Of a stretch of 27,832 bases of DNA, positions 1,827 to 3,466 are shown one piece after another. Made by a program: the position numbers and the translations under genes. The notes beneath the pieces are model-generated. The model saw nothing but the letters and a program-made list of their open reading frames with translations, was not told the origin of the DNA and ran no database searches. Origin of the DNA: a virus; the IMG/VR virus record IMGVR_UViG_3300042883_000603, positions 1-27,832 of that record; one strand, 5' to 3'. The first letter of the stretch is position 1. Every line of letters begins with the position of its first letter.

Positions 1827-2550
1827 TTTCTTTGTTTACTCTATAAACTAAATATTCTGACTGAGTCAATTTGCGCCCCTTTACGCTAATAACTCGCACC
1901 GCACCACTACTTGGCTCACTTCGCCATAGTTCGTCAAACTCAGCAAGCAATTCACGTGTTCTCGACCATTCTTTCGGCTCTGGTGCTTTCTTATATTCTT
2001 TTTTATCCATTATTTTGTTTGTTAATGCTTTGACTTGCTCAATTATTTCGTCCGATGGCTTATTGTCCAGATAGCTTTGCTCCCACTTCTTATATTTTTC
2101 TTGAATGGCCTCTGACTCAACTTGCTCCTTAGCTTTTTTTAAATCGTTTTCAAATCTATGCAAAATTTTAAAAATAGTGGTAATGTCAAACGAATGAAAC
2201 AACTCAATTTCGGGATATTTGCCCATTTTAAAATTATTAAACGCCATGACTATGTGTTGCACAGACCAATAGTAATATTCAGAATAGACCATTTGCGCCG
2301 CTTCAGCAATTTGGCTTTCGCTCATGTTCTTAGAAACATTCAAAGAAACTATTAAGCCATCGATTGTGCGTTCAATTACCTTTGAAACAAAGCCATCGCC
2401 CTGCTCTTTTCTAATCAAGGCCAATGGAGTCGGACTGCTCGTTATTAATTCTTTTATCGTTCCCGAATACAACTTCGGCAATGTACTGGTCGGCTTGTCT
2501 AATTCTCTGCTCGACTGCATTTCTGTTCTTTTCAAATTCTGATTTTCCAT
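1813..2550 (-). CDS. DUF6633-like phage protein, possible replication accessory factor
   Basis: This 245-residue protein has a core (residues about 41-140) reading TPLALIRKEQG...MSESQIAEAAQMVYSEYYY...MAFNNFKMGKYPE. That resembles the DUF6633-type proteins I know from Bacteroidetes phages and mobile elements, which often sit beside DUF4373 replication genes. By position it could be a helicase loader or initiation partner; this is inference. The C-terminal third is charged and helical. Its first 46 or so codons overlap the end of the upstream DUF4373 gene in another frame (140 nt), an unusually long overlap. Alternative internal starts (Met11) shorten this only slightly. Confidence 0.6.
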   Translation of the reverse strand: MENQNLKRTEMQSSRELDKPTSTLPKLYSGTIKELITSSPTPLALIRKEQGDGFVSKVIERTIDGLIVSLNVSKNMSESQIAEAAQMVYSEYYYWSVQHIVMAFNNFKMGKYPEIELFHSFDITTIFKILHRFENDLKKAKEQVESEAIQEKYKKWEQSYLDNKPSDEIIEQVKALTNKIMDKKEYKKAPEPKEWSRTRELLAEFDELWRSEPSSGAVRVISVKGRKLTQSEYLVYRVNKENGES

Positions 2551-3196
2551 TTTTTATAGTTTGATTGTCCCTTTTTTCCCAATTTTTGATGGCAGCCGCC
2601 CAGTTTAGATATTTAACTCCTTTGGACTGCGAATATAGCAAAGCGCTTTCGTAATACTTAGAAAGTTTTTCTCGTTCCCAATCTGGGAACGCTTCTTTAA
2701 ATATTTTTTTATTGTAATAAATAGAGTTTTCAAATGAATGTTTTTTAGTGGGCGTCAATTCGTTAGAATTGCTATACTCTTTTACTTTACTTCTATTTAC
2801 TTTACTTATCTTTACTTTAGATGCGTTTCGTACGTGTTCGAAATGCGTTTCATTTTCTATAACGTGTTGATTTTCACGCCAATGTTTCAGACGTTCTGCG
2901 CTTTTTTCTTTTTTTATCTTATAGTTTTCACTAAACTTTAGCAATTGTTTGTTGAAACTTTCGCCATTGTTTGACGATATTAGTCCAATACTTTCCATAA
3001 ACGACCAACATTTGTCCAACTTTTTTCCAATATTAAGTTGCTTTTTTAGCACCGCAGTTTTGATTGGCTTTTCTTGTTGGGCAAACTTTTCTAAAGCAGT
3101 ATAAAATAAGCCGAGACCCTCGTAGCCAAAAGCCATATAAAGTTCTGTTACCTTTTCGTCATTAAAGGAATTGGAATCGTGTAGAAAATACTTCAT
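2411..3196 (-). CDS. DUF4373 (Lin1244/Lin1753-like) replication-type protein
   Basis: Residues 1-100 match the DUF4373 / Lin1244-Lin1753 N-terminal domain: MKYFLHDSNSFNDEKVTEL, then FGYEGLGLFYTALEKFA, then a winged-helix-like region ending in a basic coil (KKEKSAERLKHWREN). The family is found in phage replication modules and resembles DnaD-like initiation proteins. The middle is low-complexity and basic. I chose ATG 3196 (261 aa) because the domain begins there and because the next start upstream lies inside the terminator hairpin. No Shine-Dalgarno is visible; the initiation region abuts the U-tract of the terminator at 3203-3238, so expression probably depends on readthrough. Confidence 0.8.
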   Translation of the reverse strand: MKYFLHDSNSFNDEKVTELYMAFGYEGLGLFYTALEKFAQQEKPIKTAVLKKQLNIGKKLDKCWSFMESIGLISSNNGESFNKQLLKFSENYKIKKEKSAERLKHWRENQHVIENETHFEHVRNASKVKISKVNRSKVKEYSNSNELTPTKKHSFENSIYYNKKIFKEAFPDWEREKLSKYYESALLYSQSKGVKYLNWAAAIKNWEKRDNQTIKNGKSEFEKNRNAVEQRIRQADQYIAEVVFGNDKRINNEQSDSIGLD

Positions 3197-3200
3197 AGAT

Positions 3201-3238
3201 GTAAAAATAAAGCCCACCAGTCGAGATTGGCGGGCTTA
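3201..3238 (-). terminator. Intrinsic terminator with a 10-nt loop, directly 5' of the DUF4373 gene
   Basis: On the minus strand AAGCCCGCC (3237-3229) pairs with GGTGGGCTT (3218-3210), nine pairs including one G-U that exists only in the minus-strand RNA. UUAUUUUU follows. The loop is AATCTCGACT (3228-3219). The U-tract ends about six nt before the start codon at 3196, so this terminator lies in the leader of the downstream gene. Confidence 0.8.
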
Positions 3239-3301
3239 GAGGTTAGTAGTGATTAACCTTTAAAATAATTTCACTTGCTCTCGACTTCAAATGAAATTAC
3301 T
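3201..3301 (-). ncRNA. Candidate structured RNA with complementary hairpin loops
   Basis: This non-coding stretch folds, as minus-strand RNA, into three hairpins. Hairpin 1 (3299-3266) has 12 continuous pairs including one G-U and the 10-nt loop AAGTCGAGAG. Hairpin 2 (3259-3240) has six pairs, AGGTTA with TAACCT. Hairpin 3 is the terminator with the 10-nt loop AATCTCGACT. AGTCGAGA of loop 1 and TCTCGACT of loop 3 are perfectly complementary over 8 bases, allowing a kissing-loop contact. A -7-like box (CGATATTTGA) at 3306-3315 would start transcription close to 3301, exactly at hairpin 1. The product would be a free RNA of about 100 nt, or the leader of the DUF4373 operon when the terminator is read through. 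Confidence 0.55.
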
Positions 3302-3306
3302 GAACT

Positions 3307-3337
3307 CAAATATCGATAATTAATCCAACAAAACGAA
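3307..3337 (-). promoter_or_regulatory. Weak promoter candidate for the structured RNA
   Basis: The minus strand carries GATATTTG at 3314-3307, one mismatch from the Bacteroidetes -7 consensus TAnnTTTG. TTCG lies 19 nt further upstream (3337-3334), one mismatch from TTTG. The ten bases CGATATTTGA are identical to the -7 region of the early promoter at 7975-8005. The predicted start, 5-7 nt downstream, coincides with the base of hairpin 1. Confidence 0.35.
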
Positions 3338-3466
3338 ATTAATGCCAGATATTTTTAAAACTTTTATTTTGCCAGTCTTAGCCATGTGATATGTCCACTG
3401 GGTTGTTTTGCTATTCTTTTTAGCATACTCGCTAAAGCTAATCAATTTGGAAATGTCTATTTTCAT
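3320..3466 (-). CDS. Small excisionase-like/HTH protein (48 aa)
   Basis: A 48-residue product, MKIDISKLISFSEYAKKNSK... ending in GKIKVLKISGINFVLLD. The layout (ISFSEYAKKNS, then TTQWTYHMAKTGKIKVLKI, then a closing strand) is that of the MerR-like/excisionase mini winged helix used by phage Xis and related DNA-binding proteins. It is probably a small regulator or recombination directionality factor, though no integrase is seen. The start codon lies 3 nt downstream of an exact TAnnTTTG box and lacks a Shine-Dalgarno, so the mRNA may be leaderless. The candidate structured RNA follows it. Confidence 0.65.
   Translation of the reverse strand: MKIDISKLISFSEYAKKNSKTTQWTYHMAKTGKIKVLKISGINFVLLD

What the first reader, a model, noticed from the sequence alone, without database searches (positions are those of the whole stretch)
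3201..3301. Candidate kissing-loop RNA in front of the replication genes
The minus-strand RNA folds into three hairpins: a 12-pair hairpin with loop AAGTCGAGAG (3299-3266), a 6-pair hairpin (3259-3240), and a terminator with loop AATCTCGACT (3237-3210). Both outer loops are 10 nt and share an 8-base perfect complement (AGTCGAGA with TCTCGACT), ending exactly at the loop edges. Chance pairing of this kind is unlikely. The stems are better in the minus-strand RNA, where A-C mismatches become G-U. A -7-like box places the RNA's 5' end at hairpin 1. The terminator's U-tract ends just before the DUF4373 start. The RNA could be a free small RNA, or a leader in which loop contact changes termination. 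A formal parallel is the P4 CI RNA, which acts by loop/target complementarity on replication-operon termination; no homology is claimed.
Basis: partly seen in the sequence, partly recalled or inferred. Interest (0 to 1): 0.85.

Follow-up and report, generated by a model that had tools for sequence, protein, structure and literature searches.

The report
Phage replication-gene RNA with kissing loops
Just in front of the gene that starts DNA replication, this uncultured phage (probably of Bacteroidota) encodes a ~100-base RNA whose first hairpin loop is perfectly complementary to the loop of its own transcription stop signal, and relatives keep that match through at least 23 different loop pairs, so it is almost certainly a working control element of a kind not yet catalogued.

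Summary
The minus strand at 3301-3203 encodes a three-hairpin RNA. Its 5' hairpin loop and its terminator loop share an 8-bp perfect complement. Shuffles of the region reproduce this in 3 of 20,000 cases, and it is the only such place in the window.

Upstream of related replication initiators, the two loops change together: 23 different loop pairs, all perfectly Watson-Crick over 6-10 bp. In a scan that chose elements by terminator stem only, 36/36 had the exact partner loop, against 0/874 mismatched pairings. On the initiator tree the loop pair changes at least 23 times, once between phages with identical initiator N-termini.

The RNA has a Bacteroidota-type -7 box with predicted start at hairpin 1, and a U-tract ending at the initiator ATG. 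It precedes non-homologous initiators. It matches no Rfam family and was not found in sequenced phages or plasmids.

Best reading: a leader that is also a terminated small RNA and controls read-through into the replication gene by loop-loop pairing. It works like P4 CI, IsrK or plasmid attenuators, with no homology shown. Direction of control and cis versus trans action remain untested.

The parts
3307..3314 (-). -7 promoter box GATATTTG (consensus TAnnTTTG); predicted +1 at 3302/3301
   Evidence: Sequence; box position -12 to -5 in flavobacteria (PMC9723704). A perfect TAnnTTTG lies within 45 nt upstream of loop 1 in 64 of 132 candidate elements versus 100 of 2640 shuffles.
3266..3299 (-). 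Hairpin 1 (12 pairs, up to 14), loop AAGTCGAGAG
   Evidence: MFE fold. In alignment A3, 8 of 12 pairs have two-sided changes and 99.5% of cells are paired.
3279..3286 (-). Loop-1 kissing segment AGTCGAGA
   Evidence: Exact complement of the loop-3 segment; 23 covarying loop pairs in relatives.
3240..3259 (-). Hairpin 2 (GGTTA..TAACC type); present in clades A and C, absent in B and D
   Evidence: MFE fold; compared.
3210..3237 (-). Hairpin 3, intrinsic terminator, loop AATCTCGACT
   Evidence: MFE fold. In A3, 4 of 10 pairs have two-sided changes and 98.8% of cells are paired.
3219..3226 (-). Loop-3 kissing segment TCTCGACT
   Evidence: In A3 the kissing helix is 93.8% paired, with compensatory changes at 3 of its 8 pairs.
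3203..3211 (-). U-tract of the terminator; predicted RNA 3' end
   Evidence: Sequence; a T-rich tract follows hairpin 3 in the relatives.
2411..3196 (-). Replication initiator gene (Lin1244_N/DUF4373-like), presumed controlled gene
   Evidence: PHROG 2562 replication initiation protein, E 2.8e-6; Pfam Lin1244_N, E 1.2e-4.

Best explanation
The minus strand at about 3301-3203 encodes a roughly 100-nt structured RNA. It starts at its own promoter at the foot of hairpin 1 and ends at an intrinsic terminator immediately before the replication-initiator start codon. The same transcript is therefore both a small RNA (when terminated) and the leader of the initiator mRNA (when read through). The hairpin-1 loop and the terminator loop form a perfect kissing helix (8 bp here, 6-10 bp in relatives), and evolution conserves the pairing rather than the sequence (shown by covariation). 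Inferred mechanism: loop-loop pairing sets how often polymerase reads through into the initiator gene. In cis, hairpin 1 is already folded when the terminator loop emerges and can pair with it before the terminator stem closes. In trans, terminated copies from sister genomes carry the same loops and can occupy the nascent ones. Read-through would then depend on genome copy number and on loop type. Sign of control and cis/trans balance are unknown.
For: Covariation: 23 distinct loop pairs with 6-10 nt own complement, while 494 of 506 mismatched pairings share 5 or fewer. Scans fixed only on the hairpin-3 stem: group D 36/36 exact partners at near-constant spacing versus 0/874 mismatched; group C has a partner in the hairpin-1 loop, while unrelated terminators with the same stem generally do not. 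Structure counts on A3: 96.0% of cells paired versus 83.4% shuffled, 54 two-sided cells versus 13.5, and a collapse when partners are slid by 1-3 columns. At least 23 loop changes on the initiator tree. L286 and L491 have identical initiator N-termini; their hairpin-3 hairpins differ at one loop base, with the matching change in loop 1. RNA strand: 88 G-U versus 24 A-C stem cells. Promoter box at hairpin 1 and terminator at the ATG. Constant position before non-homologous initiators, or before small inserted genes that precede them. In L173/L175 a third copy of the loop-1 motif sits in a hairpin at the start codon and changes with the other two.
Against: No transcript data exist. No antiterminator that competes for the terminator stem was found by eye; only the loop is engaged. 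In clades A and C the roughly 4+2 nt linkers around hairpin 2 are short compared with about 30 stacked base pairs, so the cis kiss would need bending or fraying of hairpin 1 (inference). Some homologous initiators (L171, L176-178, L461, L256) have no such RNA, so it is not essential to the gene. The window's -7 box has one mismatch.
Confidence: 0.6

Rival explanations
1. Trans-acting immunity/copy-control RNA: the main action is between molecules. Terminated RNAs pair with nascent leaders of other genomes, and loop type defines incompatibility groups, as in plasmids or P4.
For: Loops switch repeatedly while flanks stay conserved: at least 23 changes; in group D mainly hairpin 1 and the loops vary within a nearly invariant linker and terminator. 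Pairing is strictly Watson-Crick. Fully paired 7-nt loops in group D. One nucleotide change in RNAI switches compatibility of IncK plasmids (PMC10724649). Strained cis geometry in clades A and C (inference).
Against: The two loops are also tethered in one molecule, so local concentration favours cis pairing. Cassette exchange or neutral compensatory drift could explain part of the diversity. No integrase or repressor was recognised among the window proteins scanned, so lysogenic immunity has no support here.
Confidence: 0.3
2. Structural homo-oligomer: two complementary loops per RNA make head-to-tail kissing dimers or rings that act as a scaffold or protein-binding RNA rather than regulating the downstream gene.
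For: Self-complementary loops of this kind would oligomerise. Large phage-linked RNAs form homo-oligomers (PMC12286853, listed; abstract only).
Against: Only about 100 nt, with a terminator and an initiator gene directly or closely downstream. In L173/L175 a third loop copy lies at the start codon, which points to control of that gene.
Confidence: 0.08
3. DNA-level element: inverted repeats that act as a replication origin, protein-binding sites or cruciforms next to the initiator gene.
For: It lies beside the initiator gene, and the two 7-9 nt motifs are exact inverted copies.
Against: Stems prefer G-U over A-C, 88:24. There is a promoter box on one side and a U-tract on the other, for the same strand. 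One loop type occurs with different initiators, and one initiator N-terminus with different loops. The motifs sit inside hairpin loops.
Confidence: 0.05
4. Ordinary promoter plus terminator with chance loop complementarity.
For: Exact AGTCGAGA/TCTCGACT pairs 25-55 nt apart occur in more than 100 viral stretches, most of them unrelated.
Against: Loop covariation in 23 pairs and 36/36 against 0/874; shuffles 3/20,000.
Confidence: 0.01

Closest known systems
Phage P4 CI RNA with seqA/seqC (and P1/P7 c4 RNA)
   Same: RNA from the leader of a phage replication operon, on the same strand as its target, acting by complementarity on termination (PMC4825925). L173/L175 have the same A-B-C order of complementary sites.
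   Different: CI is processed from a longer transcript and represses in lysogeny. Here the RNA has its own promoter box and terminator, the complementary site is the terminator loop itself, and no Rfam match or homology was found.
IsrK of prophage Gifsy-1
   Same: One promoter gives a terminated sRNA and a read-through mRNA; the sRNA can act on the read-through product (PMC4825925).
   Different: Short IsrK makes the read-through transcript translatable and so activates AntQ; no kissing between its own loops is described in the passages read. Here the gene is a replication initiator.
Plasmid antisense control of rep genes (ColE1 RNAI/RNAII, I-complex RNAI, pT181-type attenuators)
   Same: Short complementary loops start RNA-RNA pairing that limits replication, and loop changes create new specificities (PMC10724649; ColE1 geometry from general knowledge).
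   Different: There the antisense RNA comes from the opposite strand. Here both loops are in one same-strand transcript, and one of them is the terminator loop.

Membership tests
P4 CI / seqA / isrK / c4 antisense RNAs | Match to a curated Rfam covariance model | tested here: not met
   No match at gathering cut-offs in the window; no match up to E 0.5 in seven loci of this RNA family.
P4 CI / seqA / isrK / c4 antisense RNAs | RNA segment complementary to sites in the same leader, upstream and downstream | tested here: inconclusive
   Upstream site in all clades. An additional downstream site at the start codon was seen only in L173/L175, not in the window.
P4 CI / seqA / isrK / c4 antisense RNAs | Pairing causes transcription termination or a change of target expression | not testable with these tools
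   Needs transcription or reporter assays.
Plasmid-type antisense (counter-transcribed) RNA | Antisense RNA made from the opposite strand of its target | tested here: not met
   Both loops are on the same strand; -7 box, U-tract and G-U bias all point to the minus strand.
Kissing-loop RNA (structural class) | Two hairpin loops with conserved Watson-Crick complementarity supported by covariation | tested here: met
Intrinsic terminator | G+C-rich hairpin directly followed by a U-tract | tested here: met
   Sequence and fold; conserved in relatives.
Intrinsic terminator | Transcripts end there in cells | not testable with these tools
   No RNA-seq available.

The most novel reading that the evidence does not exclude
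A self-titrating replication control in phages: each terminated leader is a free RNA whose loops recognise nascent leaders of the same loop type only. Initiator expression then falls (or rises) with genome copy number, and loop diversification creates incompatibility groups among co-infecting phages, a phage counterpart of plasmid incompatibility built from a terminator loop.
Probability: 0.3. Interest if true: 0.9.

Novelty: new variant of a known kind. Interest (0 to 1): 0.76.

Why it matters
It is an RNA family that matches no Rfam family, seen in front of non-homologous replication initiators of uncultured, probably Bacteroidota phages. Its loops evolve fast but always in step. That makes two open questions directly testable: how these phages limit early replication, and whether an RNA loop code decides which phages can replicate together. 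It also gives natural specificity variants (23 loop pairs) of a terminator that may be controlled through its loop, which could be useful as orthogonal RNA switches.

Tried and rejected
DNA similarity searches of the element in sequenced phages and plasmids found nothing relevant, so no cultured phage with RNA-seq could be used. Named phages with distant DUF4373 genes (Flavobacterium phage 1/32, Vibrio phage 1.155.O, Porphyromonas phage) were fetched; in the first two the initiator gene overlaps the gene before it, and no element was looked for further. The exact-pattern scan for AGTCGAGA/TCTCGACT gave over 100 mostly unrelated hits, so the complement alone is not diagnostic. A covariance model without the kissing helix (R1) finds clade A strongly and clade C weakly. 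Relatives cannot be drawn for a virus record. The A3 alignment misaligns hairpin 2, so its counts there are not meaningful. My automatic detector missed some elements (L173, L175, L240, L440, L455, L487), which were read by eye. A short uORF in group D (MNYQ-X-DW) is not conserved in related clades and was not pursued.

Full report
OBSERVATION. The minus strand at 3301-3203 folds into the three hairpins described (-33.8 kcal/mol, z -4.96, 0/200 shuffles as good; plus strand -29.9, z -3.57). AGTCGAGA in loop 1 (3279-3286) and its complement in the terminator loop (3219-3226) are the only two copies in the window. The combination of two hairpins with at least 6 bp and at least 8 nt complementary loops occurs in 3/20,000 dinucleotide shuffles of the region and nowhere else in the window. 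The -7 box GATATTTG (3314-3307) puts +1 at 3302/3301, using the -12 to -5 position reported for flavobacteria (PMC9723704). The terminator U-tract ends about 7 nt before the initiator ATG (3196).

RELATIVES AND COVARIATION. The initiator protein found 50 loci in viral contigs. In 42 upstream regions the same architecture recurs, and the loops differ but match each other: AGTCGAGA/TCTCGACT, AGTAGAGA/TCTCTACT, GTTGTGAG/CTCACAAC, GTAGTGAG/CTCACTAC, TTTTAGCGG/CCGCTAAAA, GATAGTAGC/GCTACTATC. Further searches gave more clades: B (GGTGGTATC, GTAGAAGC), C (GTAGGAGT, GTCGGAGT, GTGAGAG, GTGGTAG, GTCGTAG), D with fully paired 7-nt loops (GTCGTAT, GTCGGAT, GTCGCAT, GTCGTTT, GTACCAG, ATGGTAC), and outliers (AACACAC, CAGCAC, AACCAGCGAC, AGCGACAAA). 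In total there are 23 distinct pairs. Own-pair complementarity is 6-10 nt. Of 506 mismatched pairings, 494 share 5 nt or fewer, 10 share 6, and 2 share 7.

UNBIASED TESTS. Two scans selected only on the hairpin-3 stem with a free loop. Group D: 36/36 unique elements carry the exact reverse complement of loop 3 in an upstream hairpin at near-constant spacing (36-38 nt); mismatched pairs 0/874. Group C: the elements before phage replication genes carry a 7-8 nt partner in the hairpin-1 loop, while unrelated terminators sharing the GCCAG/CTGGC stem generally have no such partner. Pair counts on 18 clade-A sequences: 96.0% paired (shuffled 83.4), 15 pairs with two-sided changes (8.1), 54 two-sided cells (13.5), none of 500 shuffles as high, and collapse on sliding. 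The kissing helix itself has compensatory changes at three of its eight pairs.

INDEPENDENCE. On a tree of 74 initiator N-termini the loop type changes at least 23 times (few columns, so many forks are open). L286 and L491 have identical N-terminal protein sequences. Their hairpin-3 hairpins differ at one loop base, with the exact matching change in loop 1. Cassette exchange may account for some of the changes, but the pairing is kept throughout.

WHICH STRAND, AND RNA OR DNA. Stems tolerate G-U far more than A-C on the sense strand (88 versus 24 cells; a few antisense readings are included, so this is conservative; related sequences are not independent). A perfect TAnnTTTG box lies within 45 nt of loop 1 in 64/132 candidate elements versus 100/2640 shuffles, mostly at distances that place +1 near the foot of hairpin 1. 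Loop type and initiator type are uncoupled: GTCGGAT occurs before Lin1244_N, DUF1376 and DnaD-like initiators. This argues against the loops being initiator-binding DNA sites.

CONTEXT. Downstream genes are replication initiators of non-homologous families, or short inserted genes, in the cases checked with an initiator next. L035 is an exception not followed up. Some homologous initiators lack the RNA, so it is a removable cassette. The window phage carries recombination (NinB-like, YqaJ-like), lysis, portal and head-protease genes; no integrase or repressor was recognised among the proteins scanned.

MECHANISM. Shown: an RNA-strand structure with a conserved loop-loop complement, a promoter-like box and a terminator directly before the initiator. 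Inferred: the terminator is the default end, and loop pairing alters read-through. No antiterminator competing for the stem was seen by eye, so the effect would come from pairing during terminator folding, from trans RNAs, or both. In L173/L175 the loop-1 motif recurs in a hairpin at the start codon, and all three sites change together. This suggests that the target is expression of the initiator, and it resembles the seqA-CI-seqC order of P4 (PMC4825925). Fast loop switching with conserved flanks resembles plasmid incompatibility loops (PMC10724649). Geometry (inference): in clades A and C the linkers are short for a coaxial 30-bp stack, which favours intermolecular pairing or frayed stems; in clades B and D the cis kiss looks easy.

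KNOWN OR NEW. No Rfam match. No relevant hit in sequenced phages or plasmids at DNA level. Literature searches in the held library did not show this element, but that library is partial. It works like P4 CI, IsrK or plasmid attenuators, but membership is not shown, and the opposite-strand feature of plasmid antisense RNAs is not met.

LIMITS. All relatives are uncultured contigs. No host record is available; the assignment to Bacteroidota phages rests mainly on the TAnnTTTG box. No transcript has been seen.

Noticed in passing
L277:1930-2346, L231, L361 (HNH); L387:5113-5466, L410:7062-7415 (GIY-YIG): Homing-endonuclease-like genes (HNH, GIY-YIG) sit directly downstream of the RNA, with a replication initiator gene next in the HNH case checked (L231); the spot seems to be a favoured insertion site.
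   Followed up: partly
Group D loci, e.g. L386, L381: The group D terminator hairpin reads as a short ORF ATG-AAC-TAC-CAA-NNN-GAC-TGG-TAG (MNYQ-X-DW), with variable loop bases forming the X codon; not kept in L241, L235 or L250.
   Followed up: partly
L173:2830-3001, L175:2830-3001, L242 upstream of 2053: Three-site arrangement: the terminator loop is complementary to an upstream loop and to a hairpin at the start codon (L173/L175). In L242 TTCACACCC in a terminator-like hairpin can pair with GGGTGTGAA just before the ATG.
   Followed up: partly
L157/L160 versus window 2411-3196: The initiator N-terminal domain is swapped for a different Lin1244_N type while the C-terminal part stays the same; the upstream RNA is kept with a one-base compensated loop change.
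   Followed up: partly
window 3320-3466 (-): A 48-aa ORF ends just upstream of the promoter and overlaps the possible -33 region; no PHROG match. In some loci without the RNA a small HTH-like ORF directly precedes the initiator.
   Followed up: partly
L256 (DAOUSD010000001.1): A contig of a Deltaproteobacteria MAG encodes this phage-type initiator, without the RNA; likely mis-binned phage DNA.
   Followed up: no
L035:8168-8262 (-): A clade-A element lies before a small gene (MNILKKADEIVNQRKEE...) that does not look like an initiator; what follows was not checked.
   Followed up: no
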